DNA of 64,000 nucleotides. Origin: Zoroaster sp. YZ-2022. Lineage: Eukaryota; Echinodermata; Asteroidea; Forcipulatida; Zoroasteridae. Under the pieces are notes generated by a model. It had not been told where the DNA came from. It was given only the letters and a program-made list of their open reading frames with translations, and searched no databases. Shown here piece by piece: positions 7,572 through 64,000 of this stretch (the first letter of the stretch is position 1; every line of letters begins with the position of its first letter). The stretch is from the NCBI GenBank assembly GCA_029582265.1, contig CM055816.1:33000545-33064544 (forward strand), read 5' to 3'. Made by a program: the position numbers and the translations under genes.

Positions 7572-7724
7572 CAGTCTCACAATCAAGTCCCTGGTACCCA
7601 GCAGCACAACTGCAGCCGTAGGGATCTGGTAAGCAAAACAACTTTCCTTCGCAGTTAGTACCAGGCAGTCCACCAGTATCACAGCGAAGGCTGCCATCTT
7701 GGCCAAAGCGGTTGGGTCCTAACA
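7572..7724 (-). CDS. TIE1/2: Tie-like exon 5: EGF module 2
   Basis: The exon encodes 51 codons in phase 1-1, with acceptor TTATTTAG and donor GTAAGT. The segment LFCLPDPYGCSCAAGYQGLD is nearly diagnostic for the second EGF module of Tie receptors. Six cysteines are present; two found in vertebrate copies near the start are missing. It is the last exon of this gene in the window. Confidence 0.92.
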
Positions 7725-30890: not shown

Positions 30891-31278
30891 ACTGTAAGTA
30901 GGCCTGAATTAAACCAGGAAGTCTTCTTTTGATTTGGTTTAGACCTTTAAGCCTAAAAATGACAAATAAATGACTATTATTAAGTATTTTAGCTAATTAA
31001 TCTCCATCGTGTCTGTACTCTTATCACGTATCCAAGAGTCCATATGGCTGAAATGACAAGTTGCTCAATTGTCATCAAGTTCTGATCGAATGACACTAAA
31101 ATTTTCATAATGGGGTCGATCAAAGGCCATGTACGTCTGTAAATAAAATACAAATAAATATTGCAATACAAAATACTAGTAGTAGTTACTGTTACTGTAA
31201 GTAGGCCTGAATTAAACCAGGAAGTCTTCTTTTGATTTGGCTTAGACCTTTAAGCCTAAAAATGACAAATAAATGACT
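30891..31278. repeat. Local duplication around the exon copy
   Basis: The segment ACTGTAAGTAGGCCTGAATT ... AAATGACAAATAAATGACT occurs at 30891-30975 and again at 31191-31278, on either side of the duplicated exon. Confidence 0.85.
31065..31136 (-). pseudogene. Duplicate of the terminal exon of the PTP-kinase gene
   Basis: It is a 72-bp copy of the last exon at 36343-36414, with acceptor ACAG, open frame [18 protein letters not shown] and the same stop. Three amino acids or fewer differ. Its flanks (30980-31180) are also copied, so this is a segmental duplication with the 81-bp satellite array lying between the copies. It could be an alternative last exon or a relic. Confidence 0.75.
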
Positions 31279-33262: not shown

Positions 33263-33607
33263 ACAGTCATCAGGACTACAGTCATCACTTGGTACAATTA
33301 TACAATCAGTGGCATGCCTTGATTGGAATTACTATTCATGCTGAAGTGCACCACTGTATAAAGTGATCCATTTATTAAAGGAAAGGTACATTGGAAATTA
33401 CCGAATTATCATCCAAACCCAAACTTGATGTGAAGTTGGTAAAGGTACCAATCATACTGGAACTATTCTGTCTGAAGCACAAGAAACCAAAACTTAAACA
33501 CAAACCAAAATTGAAATTGTGTTTTCTATCAAAATGCTGAATGCTTTAAACGCTTTTCTCAATATTCTCATGACTCTGCATTGAGCTAAAACAGATTGAT
33601 TGTTCGA

Positions 33608-36256: not shown

Positions 36257-36456
36257 TTTAAGTATTTTAGCTAATTAATCTCCATTGTCTCTCTACTCTT
36301 ATCACGTATCCAAGAGTCCATCTGGCTGAAATGACAAGTTGCTCAATTGTCATCAAGTTCTGGTCGAATGACACTAAAATTGTCATAATGGGGTCGATCA
36401 AAGGCCATGTACGTCTGCAAATAAAATACAAATAAATATTGCAATACAAAATACTG
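36257..36456. repeat. Segment duplicated at 30981-31180
   Basis: Both copies run from TTTAAGTATTTTAGCTAATT through the kinase terminal exon to AATATTGCAATACAAAATAC. This copy includes the terminal exon used in the gene model. Confidence 0.9.
36343..36414 (-). CDS. Exon M: C-terminal tail and stop
   Basis: [20 protein letters not shown] and three more residues precede TGA. The acceptor TGCAG joins in phase 0 to exon L. Tyrosines in TYMAF and HYDNF are candidate docking sites. A near-identical exon lies at 31065-31136. Confidence 0.85.
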   Translation of the reverse strand, partial: TYMAFDRPHYDNFSVIRPELDDN

Positions 36457-39400
36457 GATAACATTACAGACAAAATTACATTACATTGAGCCACACACCA
36501 AGTGTACATCTATTTTATTTTTGACAAGTGCATGCTCAGTCTTGCTGAGAAAACCAAGTTGTTTTGCTCTATCATCCATTCATAATATAGTCCTCACAAT
36601 AGGTAAAACATATAGCTTTACATGGTGAAGAGGATAAGTAAGACTAATTGCGGTGACACCATGTGAAATTCTCCACTGAGTAGTAATTAGTTCTGAGAAG
36701 AACAGGAGGTTACAACTTGACGTTTCGATCAGTATGCTCTGATCGTCTTCATTGCAATTAGTCTTATTTACTCCTCACAATAGTTTGGTAGATTTTAAGA
36801 ATGCATGGGTGACATTTTAGTGAATAGAAATGCTGGTCAGATATATACATTGGCTATATTAGCCAATTGTTGTGCCTAAAAATGTAAGATACTTTACATG
36901 AAATGAGGTTGCTAGTCTTCATACGAGAATTAGTAAATTACGGCAGAATTACGGCAGCCTCAATGAATCATTAGGTAGGCCTAGATATTTACTGTAAAGC
37001 TGTGTCGGGAACAGACATTGTTTTTACAAAGGCTCTTTCTAACAAGAAAGCTAGACTTATAGCACTAGGTCATTTGATGTACATGTATGTAAAATGAAGA
37101 TTAAAACTCACATGTTCTATTTGTCTGTCATTCATATGACTCAGGATTATAACCAAGTCTGAGAAGGATAGTCTGATGGTTGGATCTTGGTACCAGCACT
37201 GGACCATCAAGTCATAACTAGATATGAGAAAAACATTCAAGGTGAGATATTGAACAATAATACTCCTTATATAAGAGAGGAGGTCCAAAGTCATGGTACA
37301 GCCAAGAATTTGAAAAGCCTGCATGGCCGGGCCCAGGCTTAGAGGCCTATATAATCCCCTATCTGAACACAAAAGACCCTTTACTAATGAATAGATCTCA
37401 AATGGCTCTTATTGTTAATACTGACTTGACTGACACCTCGGCAGACTTTTGTCCCCAGCTGCAGTCATTGTAATGAGATCAACTTGGCTGGGCTAGGCCC
37501 TCCGGAAGCTCAGGTTATGTTGATTGGTATGTACTGTATTGTTACAGGATAAGGCCTCATAAAAGAAGATTAGGACGCCAGGTAGCCTGGGCCTGGCCAG
37601 GCTTCTCAAAGGCTTGGCTGTACCAAGACTTTGGCCCTCCTCCCTAAAATATATTTCAATTATTACACTTAAAACGTAACAATCTCATACACAATTGTTG
37701 TCATTGTAATATATTTTACTGTGTGATCGATGTTTGCATTATAAGATAGACCAATTTATTAACAAATAATTCATTGAGAAAGGATTTGAGACTTTGCATG
37801 GTGGAGATAGATACTTGAGTTCTTTCGGGTGACACCATGTAATGATCTTTTCTTGGAAGAAGTGATGGCTCTGAGAAGAGCCGGTTGGTTTGTTCTCTAC
37901 TCTAGCCGTCATCATCGTCCTGATGATGGCTAGAGTAGACTAGTCAAAATGTTGAGAACAAACCAACCGGCTCTTCTCAGAGCCAATTACTTCTTCCAAG
38001 AAAAGATCACTACATGGTGTCACCCGAAAGAACTCAAGTAAATAATTAATTCATGTAAATGTCACCAAGAGTGAATTGTACAGTGTGTCTCAAAAAAATG
38101 CAAACAAAATTTAACGGAATGCCAGACGTAGAATGAGTAACCAACATAGATAATATAGGTATGGTTTGAAAGATACACCTTTCCACTTTAAAATGAGACA
38201 TCAAATGTTCAAATATGATAATTTTTGACAGAGTTATGAGTACTTTTTACAAGAGAGGTCAAATTGACGATGGGACCAAGTTTTTAAATGCAGTGATAAT
38301 CGATTTTGTTTAGATGTGCAAGTGTTGCAATGTGGATGAACTGTTGATGATTACATCCCTTCCCCCTCAACATGCCCTCCCTCTCGCTCGATACACAGGC
38401 GACATCGTCTCTCCATGTCTCCCATCGCTCTCCTAACAACATCTGGAGTCTGCCGCAGGACGTCAATCTCAGCTGTTATTCTGTCACGGAGAGTCTGCAG
38501 GTCCGGAGGGAGTCGTGTACACCTTGGATTTCAAGTATCCCCAGAGGTAGAAATCACACGGGTGAGGTCTGGAGATCTCGGTGGCCATTCATGAACATGA
38601 TTCAATGCTATGACCACGGTCTCCGAGCGCTTCATGAAGGCGGTCTCGGACAGCCAGTAGAGCGATGAGCCGGAGCGCCGTCTTGAGCCCACCACAGGCG
38701 CCTAAACACACCTCGCTCCTGAACCTCGAAATGTTCCTCAAGGATGGGGATGACATCATCATTCAACATCTCAAGGTAACGCCGGCCGTTGAGGTTGCCC
38801 TGAAAAAACACCGGTCCGACGATGAGGCCACTGCCGCAGAGGCCAACCCAGACACTCACTTTCTCACATTGGAAGTTGTGCTCGTAATTGAAGGGAGGTG
38901 GATGTTGTTTGGGGGCGTACTCTCGAACATTGCGTGAGTTGACTTTTCCGTCGAGAGAAAATCCAGCTTCATCGCCAATGACGAGATCATGGACGAATCG
39001 CACATCTGCCTGCAGCTGGTCGACGACCCACTGACAAAAAAATCAACCGTCTTGGCAAATCCGATGGTAGCAGCCGATGTTGCACGCGCATTTGGTAGGG
39101 GTGCATGCCCAGGTCCAGCCGAGTGATGCGATTGAACGTGGCATGTGGTAGGCCCAGTCCATTCCGTCTCGCACTGACATGCGGGTTGGCATCCAGCTGC
39201 GCCTCCACCAATTCGATGTTTTCCGCCGACCTCCCAGTCCAATGCCACCCGGAATGCCCTCGATTGAGATTAAGGCTGGTACCCTCCCTCCGGTACTTTC
39301 GCAGGTTTCTCCAGATAGTGCTGGCTGCAGGTGGATCTCGATCTGGGAATCGCTGCATAAATGCATCGATAACACCATTTACCGTAATTTCCGGAATATA

Positions 39401-42400
39401 AGCCGCGCGGTGTATAAGCCGCACTACCCCAAAATCACCAAAACAAGATTCATGCGTCAACATATAAGCCGCACCGCGTATAAGCCGCACACACAGAGGC
39501 CCGCGGACGCCACTCACTGTCGGTACATCGCCATAAAGGGGGTCATTGTGTTGCGTCGAGTCAAAATGTATTGAAAGAGACACAATAGCATACCTGCCAA
39601 CCTTGACAAGTGAAAATTCGTAATACTAATACTAATAGTAAAGTTTGGCACATTTTACGCATGTCTGATACATGTGCATGTACAGGAATCAACGGCACTG
39701 CTTGGGGGATCGATGTTTCTTCGACTCCACGTGTTCTTTTTCTTGACATCGTTAAGGCATTTTTACCTCCATGGTTAAGGCCACCATGGCTAATGCAGAA
39801 ATCCGTGCTGCATATTTTACAAAATGCGTGAAGTTCCCCAAGTTTGGAGGCAGCAATAACTGGGTAGCTTTCTGAGTATTTATCTCGAAATTTCTGCACC
39901 GCAGTTTTCTTGCGACATTTTTATTTTGCTGTTCCGTTCCCGTATCACTATTTACGGCATTCGGGAATGTCGAACGTAGTCCCGCTGGTTGCCTGCTTTC
40001 TGCTTTCTGCTTCATAAACCCAAAGCTCCAGTGCTTCCATCTACACACTCCGATCAGGACCTCGCAAATGCTTTTTCAGACTTTTTTGTCACAAAAATTG
40101 AGAATATCCGTCGTTCTTTTCCCTCAGTTCCTGTCATTCTATCACAAACACCATCACGCAAGGATCCACAATGTAGACTGTCCATGTTTGAGCCTACTAG
40201 TGTTACGGAGATCAAGAAACTCATCATGAAATCGCCATCAAAATCATGTGAACTTGATCCAGTGCCAACTTCGCTAATAAAACAAAATATTGATGTGTTT
40301 GCTAAGTATATCACAATTATTGTAAACAGATCTCTTTCTTCCGGTTGTTTCCCTAATAGCCAGAAGGTTGCTCATGTTAAACCACTCTAAAGAAACCCAA
40401 TTTGGACAAGGAAGTTTTCAAAATTACCGACCAGTAGCGAATTTAAAGTACCTTGGAAAAACAATCGAGCGAGTTGTTTCATCACGGATCTCTGACCACG
40501 TTCGTGCTAATAACCTGTCGGACACATTTCAGTCAGCCTACAAACCATTTCATGGAGCGAAACTGCTCTTCTTGGCGTCAACAATGACATTTTATCTGCC
40601 ATGGATGAGGGGAAAATCACTGCATTAGTTTTGTTAGACTTAAGCGCCGCTTTTGACACTGTCGATCATAAAATCCTTCTCTCCCGCCTTCAATATCATC
40701 TTGGAATACATGACACAGCCCTGGATTGGTGTAAGTCCTACCTTTTAAATAGGCCTCAGCATGTTTGTATTGGTAACGCTATCTCCGAGCCTGTTACTCT
40801 TGACTATTCTGTACCCCAAGGCTCTGTGCTCGCCCACAGTGGTTTACTGTTTATACCTCTCCAGTTCGTGATATCATTTTGAAGTATAATTTAAATTACC
40901 ATGTTTACGCTGATGACACGCAGCTTTACATTACTTTTAAATCTTCTCAAGAACCTGCTGATTCCTGCATTAAAACACTGGAGAAATGTATTCAAGAGAT
41001 TCGAAGTTGGATGAGACAAAACTTCCTGAAATTGAGCGATGAAAAAACAGAATTTGTTCTATTTGGATCACGTCAGCAATTGTCTAAAGTTTCTCTTCCA
41101 TTTATTACAATTGGTGACTGCAGATAACTCCCTCATTACATGCACGTAATTTGGGTGTTATATTTGACTCGACAATGACTTTAAAACCACATATCTCCAA
41201 CATTGTTCGCATATCATCATTTCATATCAGAAATATAAGCGATTAGGAAATACTTGAATAAAAGTGCTGCTGAACAAATTATACATGCGTTTGTCACATC
41301 ACGGCTTGATAACGGGAATGCTCTCGCTACGGTCTTCCGCAGAATCAAATATCTCGTCTTCAGCACATACAAAACACAGCAGCTCGTGTTGTGACTTTGT
41401 CCAGAAAGTCATGCCATATCACGCCAATCTTGAAAGAACTGCACTGGCTTCCTGTTTCACAGAGAATTGTTTTTAAACTTATGCTAATTGTTCACAAATC
41501 TTTTAATAACATTGCTCCAATTTATATTTCTGAACTACTTAAAGTCTACACTCCATCACGCAATTTGCGCTCCAGCAACATGTCACTCCTCAAGGAAGCA
41601 ACTTCAAAACGGAACTGGGGTGATAGGTGGTTTTGTGTCGCAGCTCCGAGACTCTGGAATCATCTTCCAACTAAACTCAAATCTTGTCATAGTATAACCA
41701 GATTCAAGTCGATGCTTAAAACTCATCTTATGTCACAACTCTTCAAAGATGATGTATATTTGTAATTGCATTGTAGGTACATGTATCTCGGTACATAATT
41801 TGTTTTCCCTATGCTATCATTGTATATTGTTTGTATTAATGTTTTTCTTTGTTTCCGCGCCTTGAGCGCCCAGCAGGGTGGATATGTGCGCGCTAAAAAT
41901 CTTTATTATTATTATTATTATTATGTAATCACTACAACGGCAACCAATGAAACGATGACTCTCGCCTGCCACGCGTAATGAATTTTCCTATTGGCTCCTT
42001 CCATAGACTACGATATAACGAATTTTCCCATTGGCTCTCTTGTACACGCGTGGCATAGACTATGATCTACGTCGTGGATTCTGATGTCGCTGGCGCTAAA
42101 CGTTGCAACGGTTTTTTCAGAAGTTTTGAATAAATCCGTGTGTATCGAGGTCCGCTCACTAAAACTGACAATGACCAGACCATTTTCGCTACGAACAATA
42201 AAGATTTTTAGGTTTCTGTTTCTGTCTGTTTACCAACGATTTTTGCTTAATTGTGCATTGTGTTTTGTTCTTCAAGATTCATACCTCAGCGTATAAGCCG
42301 CACCGCGTATAAGCCGCAGGCAACTTTTACCGTGTCAAAATCAACGTATAAGCCGCGGCTTATATTCCGGAAATTACGGTACTCTTCCAGTACGGATGTA

Positions 42401-45400
42401 CTCCGTGACACAAAAAACGCTCTACTCATTAGTTAGCTGAACACCAACCATGATCAATGTTTGACGAAAAATGAATTGACAGTACACAGTTGCACAAGTT
42501 AATTAAGCACATTACATAATACTCTAAAAAACTGTTTAGCAAGTAAACACTTTTCTTGGTATCAGTTTGTAAACATGTTTACTAGCTGAACGCACATGTC
42601 CAATTCCTAAACATCAATTTTCAATGGCTAAACACTATCCGTCCTCATGCTAAAAATGTTTAGCATGTAAACATGTTTACAAACTGATAGCAAGAAAGTG
42701 TTTAGAATTGTGTTTACTCGCTAAACACATTTTTGTAGGCCAGGCAATTATCCACACAGAGGCAATTAGGCTACCTTTGTCCCAATGCCTAAAATTGAAA
42801 ACTTGGTCCCATCGTCAATTTGACCTCTCTTGGAAAAGTACTCATAACTCTGTCAAAATTATCAGATTTGGACGTTTGATGTCTCATTTTAAAGTGGAAA
42901 GGTGTATCTTTCAAACCATACCTATATTATCTATGCTGGTTACTCATTCTACGTCTGGCATTCCGTTAAATTTTGTTTGCATTTTTTTTGAGACACACTG
43001 TATAGCGCTATAAAACTTGTACATCTTACATTTCTTTGTCACAGTTGGGTGGTTTGGGCATGCGGTATCCCTTCATCAGTTCCACAGCCAATGACTTGGT
43101 CCTGATGGTCGGATAGGGAGTGCCCCCTTAACAACAATAAAACATGTTATACTTCCACAAGAAGGCATTAATAACTTGGATGGACAAGAGGGTTTCATTA
43201 ATTGTCCATGTTGACTCTACAGTGCTCATTTTATACCATTATCACCATTATTATGGTAAATGTTCCACCGGTCTATCCAAATTGGTTCCTCCTGTTAAGG
43301 TGTTTTAGCATGAAACTCGGCTTTCTGCCTCTTCTCACCCATACACCCTACCTATACCTAGATGTAGAACAAAAAGCTACACTAATAGCTTTTTACCACA
43401 TGCTGCATCTCTTTGGGATTCCTTGACTAATCCTTTGATCTATCCTGTTTAATGAGGAATCTCAATTCCCACATTCTGCTCCTCTTGAATCTATTTAATA
43501 GGTGTTTGGGTTACTGCCCAAACACCTCTTGTTTTTGTTTGAGGTTTTACTTTTTATTTGTTTTCTGTTGCAGCCCTGTACCTTGATTGGCTTTTAGCCT
43601 TGTTCAGGGCGAATATGCATAACATCATTTCTTTTATCATATTAAAGCAAAGGTGCACTTATAAGATATTCTTGGGATAATTTATTTGTAGAGAGTAGCA
43701 ATAAGAACTCGGTAAACATTTCATTCTGATAGTGAATAAAATTTTCAAACACAGGACATGGGAAGTGGTCGGTTTTGAAAGTGCATTTGAAAGTGCAGGT
43801 GATATATTCTGCGCTGTTTTTCTAGAGCAAAGGTTATTCTTCCCATTCCATCGCATAACTATAACGTAATTATGCTTAAAATGTTTGTGTATATATGTAC
43901 AAATGTGAATGAACAAGTTCACCAATAATGCTCACTCGTCACTTAAAAGACTTATTTTCTTAACTTAGAAGACAATTTACATAAATAAATAGAAAGTTGG
44001 GCCAGCAAGAAGAAAACATCAGATTATCTTACCAAGAGTAGCGATTTCCCACAAGAGAATACCAAATGACCACCTGAAAGTAATATTTTAGAAGTAATAT
44101 TTTAGACAAAAGGGGGAAACGTGAATGTTTTGTTTAGATGTATCCTCCGTACCTGATCCAAGGTGGGCGAAGTGTCCTCATGTTGTCTGCATGCATACGT
44201 TTTGGTGTCCCCTACCCATTTGTTGCATGCCTCCCTTTTTTTAACGCTGGATCCGCCCCTTATCCAACAAATTTCATGCATTTACACTCAAATTAACAAG
44301 GCACCACATGCGTTGTATTACATAACATGTTTCAAGCGCAAACGTGAATAAAATACATTCAGTATATTTCTGTATGTTCCTTAAATCTATAACTATTTAA
44401 GATATTGCCTGCGTATGTTTTGTACGTAGACAGCTTGTAATGTTGTTTTAAGCTGGTCGACGTTAAGGTTGACGCAGAAGCAAGTTGTTATCATGTTTAG
44501 AATGTTATAGAATATACTGCCCTCAATGTTCAACTTACACATCACTCTGAGTAGTGTACGTCTGATGCATCAAAGACTCAATGGACAGCCAGCGAGTTGG
44601 AACACGTCTCTGATATCAAAAGAACAAATAATGCACACAAAAGGTCATCAAAAGTTTGGTTCTTATACGTTCTTGCTGAATAATTAAAACACAAATTGGG
44701 AATATAATATTTGTCTATAATAAGCCACAATGGTGTTGACCTCAATAACTTTGCAGCCATTTTAGTGATGATCGCTTGCATAACATACAATTTGTTTTCT
44801 GTCTTCTGATAAATTAACATTTTTACTTTCTGATGCATACAGAAATATGCTAGGTTTTTCTGAAAATTTTGGATAAAATGAGACATAAAAACTAATTTAT
44901 AACATATGTTAAGTTTAAGTTGAAATTAATATAAAATCACTTAATTCCTTTAAATCCCTTATGAAAAAAACCATACATACCATTCGGTATGTACACTAGC
45001 ACCATTTATTATCATTCATTACCAATGGTACTATTGGACTGGTTTTTATAAGGGATATTATAAAGCTATGGGCCTAAAATTTAGTTGTTATTTTTAAATA
45101 AAGTGATTACCATTGATGTCTGGGTATACATATCCCCCCCACGGGAAAGTCCAAAATCAGAAACCTTGGCAATCAATCTTTTTCCAAGCAGGATGTTTCT
45201 TGCAGCTAAATCTCGGTGAATCACCTGATCAAATATTAATGACATCCATCAAAAATAAATTCATTACATCTTAAAACAATACCAACTTCAGGTAGTTAAA
45301 TATCAAGAAATATATCGAGGAAAATATTGTACGACCAAGCTGTTTGAAAGCATGATAAACAAAGTTTCATAATAATAATAATAATAATAATAATGTAGAC

Positions 45401-48400
45401 TTATATGGCGCAGGTATCCACCAAACTGGTGCTCAAGGCGCATTACATTATTACCCCTGCTCATCAGGCTCATAAATCATTCCTGAAACCATCTCAACTC
45501 CCTGGAGAGCATACAGCTAGCTGCCATTTCAGCGCATATGGGCTAATCAAACACAATAACCAACTCTGCCCTCACAGGTACCCATTTACCCCTGGGTGGA
45601 GAGAAGCAATTATGGTCAAGTGTCTTGCTCAAGGACACAAGTACCCCGGTCGCGGTTGGGATTCGAACCCACATTCTGACAACTCAGCCATCAGAACACT
45701 TCTATACCATTAGGCTAATAGCTGGTTCCAAATAACTAGTCTACATCAGATATGTTCATATGTTATATCATTTGGAATGAATATTAAATGATCGCTTCGT
45801 GTTGGGGACTTCAGTTAAATTTTTTTTTATTGAAATGAACCATCTCATCAAAGATAAGTCTAAACTTATAAGCATGAAACAAGCTGCTGTATATATTAAG
45901 GGAAAGAACTCTTACAAGAAATTTACAAATAAATCAAACATTTTAGTAACTTAAATCTTTTTAGGTGGTTCATTAGTTTCCTCTGTGCCTATGACATCTA
46001 TTCTATGTGGCAATTTCTGTTAGTCCCCCCAACACCAGAGGTGATACGGTGAACAGCATTATTGGATAGAAAGACATGGAGCATGATTGTAACCGCCCGT
46101 AGTGACCCCTATGTCCTCAGGAGAAAAAAAGCAAAGCCTTGACGTTAACAGTTTTCTGATGAGTAGGCCTTATACTGTATAGATAAAGAAGTATGTATAA
46201 CCTGTTCCAGGCACAGCTTGTGTCTTACAAATTACTGTATTTTTGTTGGAACTATCCATTTTGCCCACATCTGGAGCAAAGCGGTTTGGTTTTGACATAC
46301 CCCTGATTTGGCAAGGTGTTCCATTCCCTTAGCAACGTCAAGAGCAAATGCCACGAGCTGTTCTGATGACAAAGATTCACGAGTCTGACTCTGGGCGAGC
46401 CGTCCATGGTAGCTACGCATGAGTCACCATTGGGAAGATATTCCAAAGCGACGTACAGAACCTCTTTACAAAGAAACATTGAAATACCATACAAATTATA
46501 TACAATATGTAATTGTATTCAACTCATCAGGAAGTTCTGAAAGCTTATATAAATTCATTTTTTACTGCAGTATCATGTTGCTTAGCACAAACAGCCATTG
46601 TAACATATGTAATGATACGTCACGGACAGACAGACTTCAGGTTCATAGTAATTTGTCTTGTCGATATGTCATACTAAGTTCGACTTAAAAATGATAAAAA
46701 TATTTTGTGACTGAAATATAGTCATTGTGCCATAAATGATGTAGGTATATAGCTCTCTCTATAAAACCATTTGGGTAAATTTGATGGTTGATCATTTCAC
46801 CACACATTTCATTCATTGTAATTACTATCTGATGATATGCATTATAATGTCAACTTTGAAAGTAAATTGCCACTGGAAGTGAAATATGAAAAATGAACCT
46901 CAACTATTTTCATACCTTCATGTTGACAAGCACCCAACAGTGAGACAATATTGGGATGGTAACCAATGGAGGTCATTGTACGGAACTCCTCCATAAAATC
47001 CTCCCGGTCACTCGGTGAGGCATGACCTTAAAACACAAGAATAACAAAATAACCTAAAAGCACGTACACTGGCAAAACCTTTATGAATTTTGAGAGACTG
47101 ACCAGGCCGGTACAAAGGTCAAGTTTAGATAGATCACTTTACTTTCTTACACTTGATCACATCCTGATACTACAGAATCTTGATGTTTCACAAACCAACA
47201 TAAAACAATGTTTAAAACACTTTTTGAGATTGTATTTAAACAATTAAGCTTTCAGAGACTTCATGATGTTTCGGGAAAGGTGATATCAACAGCATATAAT
47301 TCCTCATATATGCTGTGTACTCTTCTGCAGCCATTCTTAATTGACCATGATCATATATGATGATAAGCGAGTATGTGAATGGTACCATCTATGACGATAG
47401 TTTACTCATTTTCGAATACCTTTCAGTATCTTGATAGCAGACTTGGTCTTATGCCCGCTTACGTTCACTGTCCCTGACCTCACTTCGCCAAAGTTTCCTG
47501 TGCCAAGTATCTTATCATCAATGACAAGATTGCTCCAGAGAATTTCCCATCGGGCAGCCCAAGATGGAAGGCCGACATCTTCATAAATGATAGTATCAGT
47601 AGGATCTGCAGTAGATGTCTGTGAAAGCAAAACATGATAGTGCTTGTAAATAGCCCTTTATCGCACTGCAGCCATCTTTGTCAGATTCCCTGTATGCAAC
47701 TACGATAATTAATCGAGCTAATCCCCAATCTGTACAAGGGACCAGACTATTTTTCCTTCCAGCCTCGGTTTGGTCACATGTATGGAAGAAAGACAAGATG
47801 GCTGCATCATGATATTGATCTAATAGAAACCCCATGCCTGGTCTAACCCCGGGGCTGTTATAAATAAACATAAGGTTTATTTAGCCCTAAACATATCTCA
47901 CGATATGCAAGAACGTTAATTCTATCACCGTGGACAAATGGATTAAAACTATTCCAAGAAGTGCGTAGAATGAGAGTGACGACTAATTATAAAGATTCAG
48001 ACTTTGTCAAACTCGGCACGAAAGGAAGAAAATTTATACAAAAAAAATAGAGGGTTGTGGATATGAATATTAGATGCTAGATGTGATGTGTGATTTATTA
48101 TAAGAAATATAAATAATTAAATGTTATAAACGAAAATAGTAAGGGTTAAGAGGAGGTGAAAGCCGGCAATAAGAGTTCTTAAACAGCCTTTTTTATTTTA
48201 TTTTTTTATTATTATTTTTTTATTTTTTTATTTTTATAAAAATAGCATGACTCGTCAGGTGCAGTATGCTATAAGGCTATTGGCAGGTTTCGTCTCATGA
48301 GACTGCACGACCTGCCTGTTAAGTACTCTTTTTAAGTATTAGTAGGGGAAATGAATAAAATTATATATAAAAGAAAAAACAAACAAATAATAATAAAAAA

Positions 48401-51400
48401 ATAAATCTCACCTATTTTGTGACGAAAAAATAAAATATGGATGAGGAACTAGGAGGGTCTATCAATTAACGTTGATGCATCTGAAAATTGATAAAATAAT
48501 TTTTGTTGACGGAATGCAGTAAAGTTAAAAGTTTTTTTTTTTTTTTTAAATGTAAATATAAGATGGAGGTAAATAAAATCAATTTTATTTTTTAAACAAT
48601 TTTTTCATAAATATGAGCTTACCGTAAGATGCATAAACAAAGTCAGTAGAAATATGATGACAAACAGGAACAAAGGATAACAGAATAATGTAGAAATATG
48701 ATGCAGTAATGTAACAACATTTATGAAGTAGAAAAATACGTCTACTACGTTTGAAGGTAAATAGTGTAATAATAATACAAGGCTATTTAAAATACAAATA
48801 AAAAAATCGTACATTGCGTTTGTTATTAATAAAGAACACATAAACATTTTAATAGGTTGGTAGAGCGTTAAATGTGTGCGTAAACACTTGGCGTGAAAAA
48901 TATTTACATAATATAAAAGGATGAGACATGATAGGAAGATGAGTAACAGTAGGTAAATAATACATAAAAAAGAGATAAAAAATACTTTTATACTTTTTTT
49001 CTATCTAATTATTTTAAATAATTAAATTATTAATTTTTTAGTGTAAATGATAAGGGGGAATAGGCAGTTTGAAATAGAAAGAAAGAATAAGAAGAAAATT
49101 AAGAATTGGATAGTAACAAGTGAATGAAAGCGAATAGTTTCCAAAATCTCGGTGACAAGAAAGAACGCTGTCAAAATAGTACATTGTTTTTATTATAAAT
49201 AAACATGTTTATTTAGCCCTAAACATATCTCACGATATGCAAGAACGTTAATTCTATCACCGTGGACAAATGGATTAAAACTATTCCAAGAAGTGCGTAG
49301 AATGAGAGTGACGACTAATTATAAAGATTCAGACTTTGTCAAACTCGGCACGAAAGGAAGAAAATTTATTTAAAAAAAATAGAGGGTTGTGGATATGAAT
49401 ATTAGATGCTAGATGTGATGTGTGATTTATTATAAGAAATATAAATAATTAAATGTTATAAACGAAAATAGTAAGGGTTAAGAGGAGGTGAAAGCCGGCA
49501 ATAAGAGTTCTTAAACAGCCTTTTTTATTTTATTTTTTTATTATTATTATTTTTTTATTTTTTTATTTTTATAAAAATAGCATGACTCGTCAGGTGCAGT
49601 ATGCTATAAGGCTATTGGCAGGTTTCGTCTCATGAGACTGCACGACCTGCCTGTTAAGTACTCTTTTTAAGTATTAGTAGGGGAAATGAATAAAATTATA
49701 TATAAAAGAAAAAACAAACAAATAATAATAAAAAAATAAATCTCACCTATTTTGTGACGAAAAAATAAAATATGGATGAGGAACTAGGAGGGTCTATCAA
49801 TTAACGTTGATGCATCTGAAAATTGATAAAATAATTGTTGTTGACGGAATGCAGTCAAGTTAAAAGTTTTTTTTTTTTTTTTAAATGTTTATATAAGATG
49901 GAGGTAAATAAAATCAATTTTATTTTTTAAACAATTTTTTCATAAATATGAGCTTACCGTAAGATGCATAAACAAAGTCAGTAGAAATATGATGACAAAC
50001 AGGAACAAAGGATAACAGAATAATGTAGAAATATGATGCAGTAATGTAACAACATTTATGAAGTAGAAAAATACGTCTACTACGTTTGAAGGTAAATAGT
50101 GTAATAATAATACAAGGCTATTTAAAATACAAATAACAAAATCGTACATTGCGTTTGTTATTAATAAAGAACACATAAACATTTTAATAGGTTGGTAGAG
50201 CGTTAAATGTGTGCGTAAACACGCGCGTGAAAAATATTTACATAATATAAAAGGATGAGACATGATAGGAAGATGAGTAACAGTAGGTAAATAATACATA
50301 AAAAAGAGATAAAAAATACTTTTATACTTTTTTTCTATCTAATTATTTTAAATAATTAAATTATTTATTTTTTAGTGTAAATGATAAGGGGGAATAGGCA
50401 GTTTGAAATAGAAAGAGTCTCCTTTTTGTACAGTACGGTATCTTTAATGAATGTCCTGTGACCTTATTAACCAGCCCATCTAACCCTAGTGCCAAACAAC
50501 TGCTAACTATACCTCTAACAGCCCTGGGGGTTAGACCAGGCATGATAGTCTGGTTCACAGATTCACTGTATGCAAGTACAATAATATTGATCTAATCATC
50601 AATGCATACAAGGTACCAGACTATTTTTCCTTCCAGCCTCGGGTCACATGTATGGAAGAAAGACAAGATGGCTGTACCATGATATAGATCTAATTGAGAC
50701 CCCATGTCTGGTCTAACCCCGGGGCTGTTAGAGGTATAGTTGGCAGTTGTTTGGCACTAGGGTTAGATGGGCTGGTTAAGGTCACAGGACATTCAATAAA
50801 ATACTGTGTACACAAAGGAGACTCTTCAATGTTTTCATTTTAATCATCACTGTAAGCTAGATTAGGCCACTGTTAAATGAGCATTTCAACTATAGATGTG
50901 TGAAAGGCTCACAATCATATATTTTATGGAAAGCAATAGATGTTTGTTTGCAGATTATATTGGAGATATGATGCAAACTTTGAGTGGGCTTATTGTTGGC
51001 TTGTGACTGTTGTAAACATAAATACTCTGTGCTGACTCAGCATTGAAAACTACAGAAAACAACTGTTTTTAAAATGAAAGTTGCTACAGATAAATACCAC
51101 CGCAGAAAACGGAGGTGTTATAACTTCACCAGTGGTGTTCATAGTGGGTAACTCACCCACCATGAACACCATAAAAGAACAAAATAATTTCGTAGCTGGT
51201 GCAATTTTAATTTTTATGTTTTTTCTGGGGGAGGAGTATCAAATATCAATTGAAAAACTTTCTCTTATCTAGTTTTAATTAGGACTATATCGGGTGACTT
51301 TTAAGTAGAAAATAAAATATATTTACCATTTCCATTCCTGACACGACTGCCTGAGTATCCTTGATATCTTCATAGTCAGTAAGAGCAGGGTCCATGGAAG

Positions 51401-54400
51401 TCTGTGAAAGCAAAACATGATACTCTGGTTAAAGATGTGTCGCCCGTGTTTTGAGGTGTTACTTTACCGTTCATTTGTTTAAATGGAAACATTATGACCT
51501 TTATCACGCAGCAGACATCTTTGTCAGATGCCCTGTATGCAAGTACGATAATATATATCTAATCCTCAATGCATACAAGGTACCAGACTATTTTTCCTTC
51601 TAGCCTCAGTTTGGTCACAAGTATTTGCATCATGGAAGAAAGACAAGATGGCTGCATCGTGATCAGATCATAGAGACCCCATGCCTGGTCTAACCCCGGG
51701 GTTGTTAGAGGTGTAGTTGGCAGTTGCTTTGCACTAGGGTTAGATGGGCTGGTTAAGGTCACAGGACATTCATTAAAAATACTGTGTACACAAAGGAGAC
51801 TCTTCAATGTTTTCATTTTAATCATCACTGTAAGCTAGCTAGGCCTGAAATAAGCACTGTTTAATAAGTATTTCTAACTAAATCGTGAAAGGGTCACAAT
51901 CATATATTTTATGGGAAGCAATAGGCGTTTGTCTGTATCTCAGGTATGTGCATCATAAACGATACAAGCTGATCTGATCTCCTTTCCTAATGTTGCAAAC
52001 TTTGAATGGGCTTATTTTTGGTTTGTGAACATTGTATACATAAAGAATACTTACTTTTTGGTGAAATGGCACTGAAAACTATATAAGAGCTGAGCTGGTT
52101 CTAGGAAAGATATAACTGGCTCCATTATAATGCATTTTAGAGTTTCTTCACTTACATGGAATTGGTCTTCGATGCCAGAGGTCCCCGTCTTGCAGTCTTG
52201 TTTTTTCGTGAAGCTTGATTCCAAGAGGGCATCAAAGATGAACTTATACTGGTCCTAATGTCGGAAAGTGGAAAATCTACCCAATTAATATGTTTATAGA
52301 ATTATTGTGAACTCTAATAACATTTTAGTTTATCTAGTATTTTCAGGTTGAAGTCAAAATGTTCTCGTGGCAAGAGACTGCTGAAATTGCTGACACAAAT
52401 ATTGTTTGAAACCAACAAGGTTAAGTAGTTGTTTGTTTGCACAAACATTGTAATTTACCATGAAGCTGGAAGGTTACAACCTCAAACCATTCTTAAGTAG
52501 AACCTGTGTTTTAGAGAACCTTTCCCATAGCCATTAAAGTTATTTTTAAGGACTCTTACATACATTTGTACCTCTTGAAGAAAGTTAATTAGCTCTGGAG
52601 GTTCTTTCAGGCCTGGGAGTGCTTTTGAAAGTCAGCAGATTTGGGGTTTATGCAACTGGAATTATAGTTGATCTAAGCAAATTGCTGATTTGAGTTAACC
52701 AATCAGGATCCTTATGTTTGGTGACCACTGGTGATCAGCCAATCAGTATGTGGCTCGCTGTCACTCACTGACCGTTTTAGAGGGGTTTTTAAGGGGCTGC
52801 AGAGGGTCAAGAATCATTCTGCATCCAGAAACCAATGTACTCTATGGTTCACACGTGCATGTGACTCGTTCGATATTAGTCAAGTCATCAGTAGCCATAT
52901 CTCGTAAGTTAAGATTTTTATCGTTTTAAGTTGTAATTTTGAACTTCGTTGTTAGAATTGCTATTATTTTAGTTGTCTCTTATTGATATAATTTGGTTTT
53001 GTTATAAAGTTTGTAAACAACTGTTTAGTATTCTCTGTAGTGTGAACATTGTATTCAGAGTTGGAACTGGCATTTATTCAAGAGATATACTCTATTTTTA
53101 CAAGTGCATCCATTTTAGTAAACCAGTTTATTCATCTTTACAGTTCAATTGTTTTTGTAAATGATTTGATGCTTCACTTTAATAAAACAGATTTACATTT
53201 ACTTATTAAAGGTTTATCATTTTTGTCTTGTATATATGTAGCTTGACCAGAGACGATCATCTGGGTTAGGATGACCTAGTAGTTATACTGCTGAGAGTAT
53301 TCAGGTTAGCTCTTAACTTATTGTGTACTAGATTCGCGAAAATCTACTGAAAACTGCATATTGTATTTGTATTCTTTCACTGATGAAAAGTTGTCAGCTT
53401 TTGCAACCATATTTAGTGTAATGTGTTGTATTTTGGGTCACAATTATGAATTGTTCGATGCTTTAAGTCAAACGATTATTTTACTAGTGTTTATAACAGT
53501 TTGTTTCCATATAGTATGTTATTCACTGTGTTGTTTGGCCTTGTAACACTGTCCATGTTTTGGTTCTGGTACTTTTAATGATCTGATACTCAAGGACAAA
53601 CTCAAGCTATGCTCAAATTGTGTTATGTAATCTGTCACAATCCGTAAGTGAGACACATCAGTTATAGTGTTTTTGGCATTGATTCGCATTCATTCTAAAC
53701 CCTCCTACAATCAGTGCAATTTTTGAAATAACCCATTCAGGCCACTCCAAGCCATTAGCTGTTGCCAGTGGCCTCCTATGGTTACCCTTCTGTGCACTGT
53801 CACACCACTGAGATTGCAGGGTAAGGTAGTCTCCCATTGATACATTGCAGGCCATACTATAGTTCAAACATTTTCAGTGGCCTTGGGTGGCACAGTTGAT
53901 TTTGTAAGATTACTTGGAAAGGACAGCAGGCTTGTACATGTATGTACTGAAGGTTGCTAATTAAAGAACATAATTTAGTGGTTGGGAGTGGCTTCAATGC
54001 GTAGGAGGGCTATTGAAGGTTAAGTAAAATACAAATAGTGACCTTTTGAACATTATTTGTGTAAGTATTGTATCTAAATACACAGGGGTCCGTTAAATCG
54101 GTCTGTCAATTCGGTCCATCAAATCCGTCAATTCTATCCGTCATATTTCGTTAATAAACAACTGCAAGTGGATTATTTAGAACTTATGTGTGCTATGTCC
54201 ATTCATTTAGATGTCATATAGATCCCTGTGTCACTCGACACTAAAACCCGCTAACACTAACAATGACGTTTGGGAATTCACACATTTGAAAGACGCATAC
54301 TCTGTGCAGGGGCGTAGCGAAGGCATTTTCTTTGGGAGGGTGTGGAAGCCAATCAGATTTTTTTTGGGGGGGTGCAAATATTGTTGGTAAATTTACCGAC

Positions 54401-55963
54401 AACATACCAGCGTCTGCACCATTCCAAATCGCTGTTCCCTCATAGCACGGACAAAGTTGAGGACGTCCACTTGCCCCTCGGCTTGGGCCTGTTCCAACAT
54501 GGAGTCTACTGCAATGAACGTCCCTGTACGGCCGACACCATCACTGGGTTTCAGATCAAAGAGAACAATATTTCAATGCGGGATATATCCACTCTGTGCA
54601 TAATGTGGTTGAGGGCTGCGAGCTTTTAAATCACCCTTGATTATAGGCCAAACAAGGCCAAATGATGGGTTATAGAATAGATGTATCACCAATGTTTTGA
54701 TGGTAATTTCTGACAATTTGTTTTTTCATCAGAACATTGCTATTTTACTTGAGAGGAAAATAAATCATTTAAAATGATACATTTCATTTTGATTTTACAG
54801 TAAATGTTTCCTTATGAGGAAGAAATTTCAATTTAGAGTGCAGTAGGAGGAAAAACCCAGATAATTATTCTTGGGAAACACCCACGTGATTAAGTAGGGA
54901 CGATAAACTCAATCCACATGTCGGCTCATGCAGGTCCAAGTGGAATTGAAACCCGTGTCCACTAGGCACGTAGTGACATCATTCATCAACCAGTTACCAA
55001 TTCTGCTCAGCAGAAACAAATTGCTCACCAGAGAGATTGTCTAAGCAGGAGCCAATTTCATCAAGCTGACAATTTCACTAAGGAAATATTTTGGGTGCCA
55101 TATTGTAGAGTGCCATGGCCGAGCGGTTACGTGCATCGAACTGATGGCCGAGTCATCAGAATGTGGGTTCGAATCCTGGCCGCGACCGTGGTGCCTGTGT
55201 CCCTGAGCAAGACACTTAACTATAATTGCTTCTCTTCACCCAGGAGTATAAATGAGGACCTTTGAGGGCAGAGATGGTAATTGTGTTTGATTAAGCTCGT
55301 TGTGCTACACATTTGGCAGCATGGGCTGCATACTCCCCAGGGAGTTGAGATGGTTCTAGGAATGATATAACTGGCCTGATGACAGGGGTAATAATGTTCA
55401 CGCGCCATGAGCGTGAAAACTTGGCAAATACCGGCGCAATAAGTGTCCATTATTATTATTACATCTGCTAACCAAATATAAACAGACTACCTGCCAAAGT
55501 ATACATAATTTGCATGAAAGTTTGGCTGGTAACCAACAAAACCTGTTTAGCAATTGTTTTGCTAAGCATTTTTATCTGGTAAGCAGCTCTATGAAATCTG
55601 CTCTATATTTTGATGAATACCAGCTAAAGTTGTGCCCAAATTTTCACGAGAAGTCTGCTTTAAGATTCTTTAATAGCAAAAAATATTCACTTAATAGCAA
55701 AATTCTCTGCTCAGCAGCTTCATGTGATCTCTGACATATGAGGGTGTTAATGTTAACATGGTCACCCCTTATGTGTTCCTAATCGACCCATCCAGACTAC
55801 CCTACCTGCAGTGTACGAGGATGGGTCCCTGTTGTGAAGTCTCGGACATCTGAACTCGTCTGACAAACTGAAGTAACGATGAGGACTCTGGTAGCTTTAT
55901 TTTGGGCCAAGTGGTGTAATGATACTGCAGGATCTCATGGTTCTCGCCATCTGGCTCACTGCT
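36343..55963 (-). CDS. PTP-tyrosine kinase fusion gene, 3' 13 exons
   Basis: Thirteen minus-strand exons total 1443 nt: 55806-55963, 54408-54543, 52156-52254, 51327-51401, 47420-47618, 46916-47026, 46301-46463, 45111-45224, 44539-44609, 44033-44073, 43030-43127, 37112-37217 and 36343-36414. They encode the C-terminal half of a PTP domain, a ~55-residue linker, a full TK domain and a 25-residue tail. All junctions are GT/AG and phases match (0, 2, 0, 0, 0, 1, 1, 0, 0, 2, 1, 2, 0). There is no stop, start or poly-A signal between the two enzymes. Two single-base shifts lie in the kinase exons (near 46420 and 43080). The kinase is closest in motif style to Tie/FGFR receptors. The receptor part and first half of the PTP should lie above 56000. 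It may be a functional fusion receptor or a decaying one. Confidence 0.8.
36645..36770. mobile_element. Truncated foldback element of the CACCATGTG family
   Basis: GCGGTGACACCATGTGAAAT, GTTACAACTTGACGTTTCGA and CAGTATGCTCTGATCGTC match one arm and the centre of the element at 11447-11690. The other arm is missing. It lies in the intron between exons L and M. Confidence 0.75.
37112..37217 (-). CDS. Exon L: end of kinase domain
   Basis: The exon encodes 35 codons: [20 protein letters not shown] then [17 protein letters not shown]-x(6)-R-x-SF is the last conserved kinase motif. Acceptor TCTAG, donor GTGAGT. The preceding intron is 5.8 kb long because of the transposon nest. Confidence 0.94.
37814..38038. 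mobile_element. Foldback element with hammerhead-like core
   Basis: Inverted arms of about 100 bp start CTTGAGTTCTTTCGGGTGAC and contain CACCATGT and AGAGCCGGTTGG. The centre reads CCTGATGATGGCTAG...CTAGTC-AAAATG. The pattern is shared with the Penelope terminal repeats and the element at 11447, but the GAAA of the core is AAAA here. Confidence 0.8.
39561..39899 (-). pseudogene. BED-like zinc finger fragment
   Basis: [20 protein letters not shown] and [19 protein letters not shown] resemble the amino-terminal BED zinc finger of hAT-like transposases. The distal His pair is degraded and no catalytic domain follows. Confidence 0.5.
39985..41935 (+). mobile_element. CR1/L2-type LINE fragment, 3' part
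   Basis: Reverse transcriptase motifs include [47 protein letters not shown] and [14 protein letters not shown] (catalytic YADD). At least four frame changes separate them. The 3' end (CGCCTTGAGCGCCCAGCAGG then an (ATT)n tail at 41905-41925) fits this LINE group. It is 5' truncated. Confidence 0.9.
42525..42735. repeat. Palindromic MITE-like repeat
   Basis: TTTAGCAAGTAAACACTTTT, CAGTTTGTAAACATGTTTA and their inverses flank a central TTCAATGGCTAAACA. It lies within the right part of the mariner-like element. Confidence 0.7.
43030..43127 (-). CDS. Exon K: kinase helix G, one extra base
   Basis: The exon encodes [16 protein letters not shown], then in a shifted frame [16 protein letters not shown]. 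The exon is 98 nt where phase demands 97; an extra A in GGAAACTG near 43080 is the simplest cause. Without it a stop codon would be read soon after. The intron next to it begins only 30 bp from a mariner-type insertion. Confidence 0.9.
44033..44073 (-). CDS. Exon J: kinase helix F
   Basis: A 41-nt exon encodes [13 protein letters not shown], the conserved DVW-S-[FY]-G segment once joined to exon I. Donor GTAAGA. Confidence 0.92.
44539..44609 (-). CDS. Exon I: kinase P+1 loop
   Basis: [20 protein letters not shown] is followed by QSD. IES in place of APE matches the Tie and VEGFR-like group. The donor is GTAAGT, phase 2. Confidence 0.93.
45111..45224 (-). CDS. Exon H: kinase catalytic loop and DFG
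   Basis: The exon encodes 38 codons in phase 0-0. It begins [20 protein letters not shown] and continues [18 protein letters not shown]. The catalytic Asp, the Asn and the DFG metal-binding Asp are all present, plus one activation-loop Tyr. The HRDLAARN form is specific to tyrosine kinases. Confidence 0.96.
45372..45735 (-). mobile_element. tRNA-derived SINE, full length
   Basis: On the minus strand an A-box-like TAGCCTAATGGTATAGAAG and a B box GGGTTCGAATCCCAACC precede a body ending in (ATT)n. It matches the copies at 7363 and 55110. It is a SINE, not a functional tRNA gene. Confidence 0.88.
46301..46463 (-). CDS. Exon G: kinase hinge and helix E, one base short
   Basis: The first part reads [14 protein letters not shown] and the second part, in another frame, [20 protein letters not shown] then [19 protein letters not shown]. 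The exon is 163 nt where phase demands 164, so one base is missing near 46419-46425. The motif order is otherwise normal for a Tie-like kinase. Whether this is an assembly error or a true frameshift cannot be told from the window. Confidence 0.88.
46916..47026 (-). CDS. Exon F: kinase helix C and strand 4
   Basis: The exon encodes 37 codons in phase 1-1. [20 protein letters not shown] carries the helix-C glutamate, followed by [11 protein letters not shown], a signature of Tie/FGFR/VEGFR-type kinases. Confidence 0.93.
47420..47618 (-). CDS. Exon E: linker and kinase ATP-binding lobe
   Basis: The exon encodes 66 codons plus one base. After [20 protein letters not shown] comes [18 protein letters not shown], then the glycine loop GTGNFGEV and SAIKILK with the ATP-anchoring lysine. 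The TIIYEDV segment fits an ITIM-like site (IxYxxV). The donor GTATTC is weak. Confidence 0.92.
47862..50415. repeat. Tandem duplication, 1332-bp period
   Basis: CTCACGATATGCAAGAACG starts at 47897 and again at 49229, and the two units are nearly identical to 50415, where the second lacks about 110 bp. They include ATTGGCAGGTTTCGTCTCAT and CTGCACGACCTGCCTGTTAA. Both copies carry the same hydrophobic minus-strand frame ([20 protein letters not shown]), which is AT-rich and probably not a gene. The element class is unknown. Confidence 0.9.
50416..50827. mobile_element. Intact MITE with ~105-bp inverted ends
   Basis: GAGTCTCCTTTTTGTACAGT ... CTAACAGCC is the inverse of GGCTGTTAGAGGTATAGTTG ... 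GGAGACTC. The interior CCAGACTATTTTTCCTTCC also occurs at 47750 and 51585, so three copies or parts lie in neighbouring introns. Confidence 0.85.
51327..51401 (-). CDS. Exon D: linker with TDYEDI motif
   Basis: The exon encodes 25 codons in phase 0-0 (acceptor TTTCACAG, donor GTAAAT), beginning [20 protein letters not shown]. It resembles the start of exon E ([15 protein letters not shown]), and the intron bases before both acceptors are alike, indicating an exon duplication. TxYxxI fits an ITSM-like phosphotyrosine site. Confidence 0.75.
51485..51813. mobile_element. Related MITE, left end missing
   Basis: It shares the interior and the right inverted end with 50416-50827. Downstream flanks (TTCAATGTTTTCATTTTAAT ... 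CACAATCATATATTTTATGG) are also shared, showing that a larger segment was duplicated. Confidence 0.8.
52156..52254 (-). CDS. Exon C: end of PTP domain
   Basis: The exon encodes 33 codons in phase 0-0. It begins [13 protein letters not shown], the last conserved PTP motif (QY-x-F-x-x-x-AL), then a polar linker [19 protein letters not shown]. It ends with a strong GTAAGT donor, not a stop, so the protein continues. Confidence 0.88.
52255..54407 (-). other. Intron between exons B and C
   Basis: No repeat or exon was recognised in most of this 2.1-kb intron. A CAGGGGCGTAGCGAAGG segment at 54307, followed by G-rich sequence, resembles one end of a hAT MITE without its partner. Confidence 0.5.
54408..54543 (-). 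CDS. Exon B: PTP P-loop and helix, Q-loop start
   Basis: Joined to exon A it completes [17 protein letters not shown]; most active PTPs have HCSAGVGRTG. It continues [20 protein letters not shown] with donor GTATGT. Catalytic Cys and Arg and the Q-loop MVQT are intact; the Ala-to-Asp change after Ser is uncommon in active domains. Confidence 0.92.
55110..55465 (+). mobile_element. tRNA-derived SINE, full length
   Basis: A box TGGCCGAGCGGTTACGTG and B box GGTTCGAATCCTGGCC resemble a Leu/Ser-type tRNA. They are followed by CCCTGAGCAAGACACTTAAC and an (ATT)n tail. It lies in the intron between exons A and B. Confidence 0.9.
55806..55963 (-). CDS. Exon A: PTP domain, WPD-loop region to P-loop Cys
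   Basis: The acceptor CCTACAG follows a pyrimidine tract. The exon reads [20 protein letters not shown], then [18 protein letters not shown], then GPILVHC, with donor GTAGGG. This is the classical PTP stretch H-[FY]-x-x-W-P-D-x-x-x-P to the catalytic VHC. The WPD aspartate, the general acid of the reaction, is lysine here. The P-loop is split by the intron after two bases of the Ser codon. Confidence 0.9.
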
Positions 55964-56021
55964 CTGTAGGAACAAACAAAAGTACAAGAAAGATGGAAAC
56001 TCTTGTATCTGGGAAATCATT

Positions 56022-63969: not shown

Positions 63970-64000
63970 NNNNNNNNNNNNNNNNNNNNNNNNNNNNNNN
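63970..64000. other. Assembly gap
   Basis: Unknown bases to the end of the window, directly after satellite sequence. Confidence 0.99.

What the first reader, a model, noticed from the sequence alone, without database searches (positions are those of the whole stretch)
36343..55963. A protein tyrosine phosphatase fused in frame to a receptor-type tyrosine kinase
Seen: 13 minus-strand exons with compatible phases carry PTP motifs (HC-x5-R loop, [13 protein letters not shown]), then two linker exons, then a full tyrosine kinase. The exon that ends the PTP domain closes with a GTAAGT donor in phase 0, and the exon that opens the kinase starts with an acceptor, not a start codon. Known: PTPs and tyrosine kinases are normally separate proteins in animals, and I recall combined architectures only from choanoflagellate surveys. 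Inference: one polypeptide holds opposing enzyme types, with the kinase where a second PTP domain would usually sit.
Basis: partly seen in the sequence, partly recalled or inferred. Interest (0 to 1): 0.93.

Follow-up and report, generated by a model that had tools for sequence, protein, structure and literature searches.

The report
Sea-star phosphatase-kinase fusion receptors
A sea-star genome appears to carry a small family of cell-surface receptor genes in which a receptor phosphatase has had its second phosphatase domain replaced by a tyrosine kinase, while the phosphatase domain that remains has lost a key catalytic residue; the copy in this window is a damaged member.

Summary
In this window, however, only the C-terminal half of the PTP domain is present, its WPD loop reads WPK, and kinase exon 7 carries a one-base frameshift, so the catalytic loop is out of frame. 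The arrangement itself recurs. In the same genome 11 PTP E1 copies, this one included, are followed on the same strand by the same kinase exons, nine of them with D1 N-half exons in order upstream. Five of the six fused C10 loci that I fetched are open from E1 to the kinase stop with canonical splice sites; the sixth is broken. One gives a 641-aa model with complete Y_phosphatase and tyrosine-kinase domains. A remnant of the lost second PTP domain lies in the joining intron of all six. All 11 fused copies read WPK or WPE; WPD occurs at five other copies, one of them an exon just upstream of this window's gene. No protein retrieved from other species shows both domains. Best reading: a lineage-specific receptor family coupling a probably inactive phosphatase domain to an intact kinase. 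No transcript was available.

The parts
55806..55963 (-). PTP exon E1: WPD-loop exon, here WPK ([13 protein letters not shown]), ends in VHC
   Evidence: 21 copies in the genome, this one included
54408..54543 (-). PTP exon E2: phosphate loop completed ([10 protein letters not shown]) through MVQTL
52156..52254 (-). PTP exon E3: end of D1 ([14 protein letters not shown]) and start of the former D1-D2 linker; phase-0 donor
   Evidence: a D2 remnant follows this exon in six C10 loci but not in the 330 nt looked at here
51327..51401 (-). Linker exon E4 ([13 protein letters not shown]...); in the C10 loci the like stretch is part of exon E5
47420..47618 (-). Kinase exon E5: juxtamembrane YEDV, glycine loop [11 protein letters not shown] lysine
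46916..47026 (-). Kinase exon E6
46301..46463 (-). Kinase exon E7 with a one-base frameshift relative to paralogues (163 nt against 164)
45111..45224 (-). Kinase exon E8: [11 protein letters not shown]
44539..44609 (-). Kinase exon E9
44033..44073 (-). Kinase exon E10
43030..43126 (-). Kinase exon E11
37112..37217 (-). Kinase exon E12
36343..36414 (-). Last kinase exon E13, ends ...IRPELDDN stop, a C-terminus shared with sea-star RTKs P0001-P0004
56018..57666 (.). 81-bp minisatellite array next to exon E1, upstream of it
63970..64000 (.). Start of a 500-N assembly gap (to 64469) between these exons and WPD-type D1 exons upstream

Best explanation
The exons are a damaged member of a lineage-specific sea-star family of chimeric receptors. 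Shown at the level of gene models: in several loci an FN3-type receptor tyrosine phosphatase has, downstream of D1 and in place of D2, the cytoplasmic exons of a Tie/FGFR-like receptor tyrosine kinase, beginning at the juxtamembrane exon and joined phase 0 to phase 0. Shown by sequence: in all 11 fused E1 copies the general-acid aspartate of the WPD loop is K or E; in the seven fused copies read the phosphate loop has D in place of A; in five loci the kinase is open and keeps its catalytic motifs. Inferred: the join probably happened once and was amplified, mostly on one chromosome; and the receptor has a kinase output. Ligand-driven clustering through the phosphatase-type ectodomain would activate the distal kinase, and the dead or crippled D1 between membrane and kinase would act as a spacer, dimer interface or phosphotyrosine-binding decoy. 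A receptor that removed phosphate would thus have become one that adds it.
For: Same-strand order cytoplasmic exon, four D1 N-half exons, E1, E2, kinase exon at nine C10 loci. Open E1-E13 with AG/GT at five of six fetched fused C10 loci, all motifs kept. Locus g1 (C10:25348300-25363900) gives a 641-aa model with PF00102 1-234/234 and PF07714 4-257/258. No N in the E1-E13 span of the window or of the six loci. The intron from E3 to the kinase in g1 is about 0.85 kb, and exon E5 has no in-frame ATG. D2 remnant past E3 in six of six fused C10 loci. Membrane or last-FN3 exon upstream on the same strand at 9 of the 11 fused E1 loci. WPK/WPE in 11 of 11 fused E1 copies, WPD in 5 of the 10 others (Fisher p 0.012). 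Six fused kinases one clade (99/98) among sea-star RTKs of other species. Kinase dN below dS in all ten pairs, ratio 0.12-0.66. WPE cuts PTPRK turnover about 115-fold (PMC7320164, passages).
Against: No RNA evidence. The window copy has a frameshift, g2 is broken in E5, E8, E9 and E10, g5 shows no D1 N-half or membrane exon in the 11.6 kb before E1, which hold a 500-N gap. For the PTP half dN/dS is weak (pooled 0.61; not significant in the two pairs tested). Exons are mostly 91-100% identical to the window copy, so open frames partly reflect recency. The tree holds no unfused kinases of this genome, and at exon E5 some of these (up to 89%) are as close to the window copy as fused ones (78-89%), so a single origin is not shown. 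The WPD contrast depends on counting: with the WPD exon upstream of the window gene taken as part of a fused gene, p is 0.12. WPE does not always abolish activity: PTPD1 (WPE) was active on DiFMUP (PMC2638020, passages). Skipping of PTP exons would also keep phase.
Confidence: 0.72

Rival explanations
1. Segmental-duplication debris: PTP and kinase exons were brought together by rearrangement in a repeat-rich cluster and amplified, but no functional fused protein is made.
For: Window copy frameshifted; exon copy A2 upstream of the window broken (by eye); g2 broken; g5 without visible D1 N-half; minisatellites at the borders of the window copy; weak constraint on the PTP half.
Against: Five of six fetched fused C10 loci are open over 12 exons and about 1.4 kb of coding sequence with splice sites and kinase motifs kept; kinase dN significantly below dS in three of four pairs tested (all three include g3; pairs chosen).
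Confidence: 0.17
2. Two genes: a receptor phosphatase that ends after D1 and a separate kinase gene downstream.
For: In other sea stars the two families are separate proteins encoded on contigs of equal length, so probably the same scaffolds.
Against: About 0.85 kb between E3 and the kinase in g1, too little for an ectodomain and membrane span; E5 begins with an acceptor and has no in-frame ATG; E3 ends in a phase-0 donor. I did not search for a promoter in that intron.
Confidence: 0.05
3. Both halves are active: the WPE/WPK D1 keeps weak or altered phosphatase activity (for example on phosphoinositides, as reported for PTPRQ with WPE), giving a self-limiting kinase.
For: Catalytic Cys and Arg, KNRY loop and MVQT are kept in g1; WPE in PTPRQ goes with phosphoinositide activity (PMC7320164, passages); PTPD1 (WPE) is active on DiFMUP though not on phosphopeptides (PMC2638020, passages).
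Against: Two catalytic positions changed together; K rather than E in four of the eleven fused copies; WPE alone costs PTPRK about 115-fold and PTP1B about three orders of magnitude (passages).
Confidence: 0.12
4. Assembly artefact joining a phosphatase locus to a kinase locus.
For: 500-N gaps near several copies, including the window.
Against: No N within E1-E13 of the window or of six C10 loci; the join recurs at 11 E1 loci with the same phases and D2 remnant where read.
Confidence: 0.03

Closest known systems
Sea-star FN3 receptor tyrosine phosphatases (for example Patiria P0121/P0124, Asterias P0123, Acanthaster P0126)
   Same: The eleven sea-star hits P0121-P0131 are 59-68% identical to the window's PTP exons; the C1 stretch upstream has their ectodomain and D1 exons.
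   Different: The four that I read have WPD and HCSAG in D1, a D2 domain and no kinase.
Sea-star Tie/FGFR-like receptor tyrosine kinases (Acanthaster P0001/P0241, Patiria P0002/P0243, Asterias P0242)
   Same: Kinase up to 75% identical; like juxtamembrane motif YEDVGLPSW; the six fused kinases tested nest among them, sister to P0242.
   Different: In those read (P0001, P0002, P0242, P0243) the membrane span leads to the kinase without a PTP domain.
PTPRU and PTPRN/PTPRN2 (receptor pseudophosphatases)
   Same: Altered catalytic motifs in the D1 of a receptor phosphatase; PTPRU D1 is WPE, inactive, and binds substrates of active kin (PMC7320164, abstract and passages).
   Different: No kinase is attached. 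PTPRU's second domain is another pseudophosphatase, and PTPRU also has a changed KNRY loop, which g1 keeps.
Monosiga tyrosine kinases with unusual domain partners
   Same: Tyrosine kinases joined to domains not paired with them in animals (PMC3082566, passages).
   Different: The passages name C2, FYVE and PTB partners, not PTP; the genome surveys that I recall were not held.

Membership tests
Receptor-type protein tyrosine phosphatase | Complete classical PTP domain (PF00102) | tested here: met
   Not in the window alone (130-234 of 234), but met in locus g1: 1-234 of 234
Receptor-type protein tyrosine phosphatase | Catalytic WPD aspartate | tested here: not met
   K or E in 11 of 11 fused E1 copies, D in 5 of the other 10
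Receptor-type protein tyrosine phosphatase | Catalytic C-x5-R loop | tested here: met
   [10 protein letters not shown] in the window and in g1-g5 and g7, and in g6 without kinase; the residue after HCS is A in the WPD-type exon copy A
Receptor-type protein tyrosine phosphatase | Second PTP domain D2, as in the sea-star relatives read | tested here: not met
   Kinase in its place; a 22-33-residue D2 remnant in the intron of six C10 loci
Receptor tyrosine kinase | Complete tyrosine kinase domain with GxGxx[15 protein letters not shown] | tested here: met
   g1, g3, g4, g5, g7; the window copy has the motifs but a frameshift between them
Receptor tyrosine kinase | Membrane span and ectodomain in the same gene | tested here: inconclusive
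   Membrane exon upstream on the same strand at six C10 fused loci and the C1 locus, by position only; not spliced end to end
Receptor pseudophosphatase | No catalytic activity | not testable with these tools
   Predicted from loop substitutions only
Bifunctional kinase-phosphatase | Both activities in one chain | not testable with these tools
   Sequence argues against normal phosphatase activity

The most novel reading that the evidence does not exclude
An animal receptor family in which a whole receptor phosphatase, ectodomain included, was converted into a receptor kinase: the D2 slot was taken by an RTK kinase, and D1 was turned into a pseudophosphatase that now regulates or feeds substrates to the kinase, a built-in phosphotyrosine-binding decoy in cis.
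Probability: 0.45. Interest if true: 0.92.

Novelty: new variant of a known kind. Interest (0 to 1): 0.84.

Why it matters
Tyrosine kinases and tyrosine phosphatases oppose each other and, in the proteins that I retrieved, sit in separate chains. A multi-copy receptor family that carries both folds, with a remnant of the replaced domain at the joint and with the phosphatase general acid lost in the fused copies, would show directly how a receptor can swap signalling sign. It makes testable what a pseudophosphatase does when tied to a kinase.

Tried and rejected
Rejected: that the window copy is itself a full, intact fusion (frameshift in exon 7, only the C-terminal half of D1, gap at 63970-64469). 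Not accepted as certain: that the D1 N-half exons on C1 at 33.075-33.080 Mb belong to the fused exons; at the last of these exons they are 95-97% like three copies without kinase and 66-76% like fused ones, and a second E1/E2 pair with a broken second exon and the gap lie between. Rejected as found: the fusion as an annotated protein elsewhere. Lower-ranked hits were not seen. Led nowhere: paper searches for a PTP-kinase receptor showed none in their listings or abstract starts; two choanoflagellate surveys are not held. The species was not identified beyond a sea star by best hits. Positions were typed; of the kinase rows only the 37 top ones were used, and two E1 copies (C10:27069889 and 28313819) were not: no listed kinase row lies near them. 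Unfused kinases of this genome could not be put in the tree, as I held no letters of them.
Full report
What was claimed. A stage-one reader saw, on the minus strand of 36343-55963, a tyrosine phosphatase joined in frame to a tyrosine kinase.

Check of the observation. The 13 exons were rebuilt at the stated coordinates with GT...AG at all 12 introns. Pfam on the joined reading gives Y_phosphatase (E 4.4e-35) and tyrosine kinase (E 2.5e-81). Three corrections follow. The PTP match covers only profile positions 130-234 of 234. The WPD loop reads WPK and the phosphate loop [10 protein letters not shown]. Exon 7 of the kinase changes frame inside: it is 163 nt against 164 in paralogues, and a strict reading stops just after it, before the HRDLAARN loop. 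I cannot tell a real mutation from a base error in the assembly.

Who it is. The best kinase relatives are sea-star receptor kinases (Acanthaster P0001, Patiria P0002, 75% identity) and the best PTP relatives are sea-star FN3 receptor phosphatases (P0121-P0131, 59-68%). In both listings the two families sit on contigs of the same length in four species (1120545 Acanthaster, 46651055 Patiria, 17180802 A. rubens, 21203961 A. amurensis), so probably on the same scaffolds. The window is C1:33000545-33064544 of a 1.0-Gb assembly.

Upstream on C1. Sixty kilobases beyond the window hold, on the same strand, parts of a receptor: N-terminal exon, Ig, EGF and FN3 exons, a cytoplasmic exon and D1 N-half exons, and a membrane exon at about 81407-81231 in window coordinates continued (by hydropathy). 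They also hold another copy of exons E1/E2 at about 65289 and 64752: its E1 reads WPD, but its E2 is, by eye, frameshifted and without the donor. A 500-N gap (63970-64469) separates this from the window's PTP exons. At the last D1 N-half exon this stretch is 95-97% like three copies without a kinase and 66-76% like fused copies, so it may be a neighbouring ordinary receptor phosphatase rather than the 5' end of the fused gene.

The genome-wide test. Searches (PF00102; kinase exons 5-6; cytoplasmic and D1 N-half exons) were combined by position, neighbours up to 14 kb apart (of the kinase rows the top 37 were used). Of 18 clusters printed, 12 have the kinase exon on the same strand: 11 with E1, one with E2 only. 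Nine C10 clusters have the order cytoplasmic exon, four D1 N-half exons, E1, E2, kinase. Six clusters have no kinase; two of these have further PTP matches nearby that look like D2 (C10:28275961 and 28278615; 27257302 and 27254824).

Reading frames. Seven loci were fetched; six carry the kinase exons, the C22 locus does not. Five of the six (g1, g3, g4, g5, g7) are open from E1 to the stop in E13 with canonical splice sites and all kinase motifs (for g3 the acceptor of E10 was first misplaced by my script and then corrected). g2 is broken, first in E5. No N lies within E1-E13 in the window or in the six loci. For g1, 3.7 kb more completed D1: 641 residues, PF00102 1-234 of 234 (E 6.4e-81) and PF07714 4-257 of 258 (E 5e-87). 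g5 shows an FN3 exon but no D1 N-half or membrane exon in the stretch before E1, which holds a 500-N gap, so an open E1-E13 does not by itself make a whole gene. Membrane exons lie upstream of six C10 fused loci and of the C1 locus, and a membrane or last-FN3 exon upstream of 9 of the 11 fused E1 loci.

How the fusion arose. In the six fused C10 loci a stretch after E3 matches D2; in g1 it begins about 50 nt past the donor and reads [24 protein letters not shown], the counterpart of [30 protein letters not shown] in Asterias P0123. The kinase exons start in the juxtamembrane region, like the stretch after the membrane span of Asterias P0242. A tree of 31 kinases puts the six fused ones in one clade (99/98), sister to P0242 (96/97). 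That tree has no unfused kinases of this genome; at exon E5 some of these are as close to the window copy (up to 89%) as fused ones are (78-89%). One origin followed by duplication is the simplest reading, because the joint and the D2 remnant are shared, but it is not shown.

What it probably does. A motif search found 21 E1 copies: WPD in 5, WPK in 7, WPE in 9. The 11 copies with a kinase are WPK (4) or WPE (7); the other 10 are 5 WPD, 3 WPK, 2 WPE. Fisher p is 0.012. Two placements are judgement: the WPD exon upstream of the window's gene and the WPE copy at C10:28100340 lie in clusters that also hold a kinase, but another E1 stands nearer to it. With the first counted as fused p is 0.12, with both 0.047. 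Descent makes the copies dependent in any case. The residue after HCS is D in the eight copies read that lack WPD (window and g1-g7, of which seven are fused) and A in the one WPD copy read. Published work: WPE lowers PTPRK D1 turnover about 115-fold and PTP1B by orders of magnitude; PTPRU D1 (WPE and more changes) is inactive but binds substrates, and restoring its D did not restore activity (PMC7320164, abstract and passages). WPE is found in D2 domains of negligible activity, and an A-to-S change in the phosphate loop recalls IA2; but PTPD1, with WPE, was active on DiFMUP (PMC2638020, passages). That IA-2 itself has D at this loop position is recalled, not read. Kinase dN/dS is 0.12-0.66 over ten pairs, pooled 0.44; PTP 0.27-1.00 over fifteen pairs, pooled 0.61. 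Of the pairs that I then picked, kinase g3-g5 (p 0.001), g1-g3 (0.010) and g3-g7 (0.0004) are significant, g4-g7 (0.23) is not; PTP g3-g5 (0.25) and g5-g7 (0.058) are not. I infer a receptor with kinase output whose proximal PTP domain is a pseudophosphatase. That inference is not shown.

Elsewhere. No listed protein in three searches bears both Pfam domains (120 rows listed each) and none of 350 fetched proteins has both motif pairs. Paper searches (listings and abstract starts) showed no PTP-kinase receptor. Two choanoflagellate surveys that I recall were not held.

Verdict. The architecture is very likely real in this sea star and not reported in what I could search; the window's own copy is a damaged member; and the phrase 'opposing enzymes in one chain' should be softened to 'a kinase joined to a probable pseudophosphatase'.

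Noticed in passing
33603-36220, 56018-57666, 63275-63960: Arrays of one 81-bp minisatellite in two orientations lie on both sides of the PTP-kinase exons; long stretches are open on both strands by repeat periodicity.
   Followed up: partly
30980-31177: Second copy of the last kinase exon and its flanks, 96.5% identical to 36258-36455, same strand.
   Followed up: partly
7573-21245, minus strand: 5' exons of another receptor of the same kind (N-terminal exon 21245-20805, Ig 17710-17432, EGF-like 12185-12051 and 7728-7573, by tblastn to sea-star RPTPs), a tandem neighbour downstream.
   Followed up: partly
47858-49082 and 49193-50416: 1.2-kb direct duplication, 98.6% identical, inside the intron before kinase exon E5.
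   Followed up: no
38635-41762: Mobile-element remains in the intron between kinase exons E11 and E12: a reverse-transcriptase fragment at 40514-40879 (RVT_1, below its cut-off) and a mariner-like stretch around 39.6-38.6 kb (name recalled; no transposase family matched).
   Followed up: partly
13982-14701, plus strand: Transposase ORF (DDE_Tnp_1_7, E 4.4e-34).
   Followed up: no
L026 (C10 locus g4), just past exon E3: In g4 the frame runs open from E3 through the intron start into the D2 remnant, so an unspliced form could add a remnant tail.
   Followed up: no
L009:1132-1289 and from L009:752 downwards (65289-65132 and 64752 in window coordinates continued), minus strand: Duplicate of exons E1/E2 with WPD and HCSAG but a broken second exon.
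   Followed up: partly
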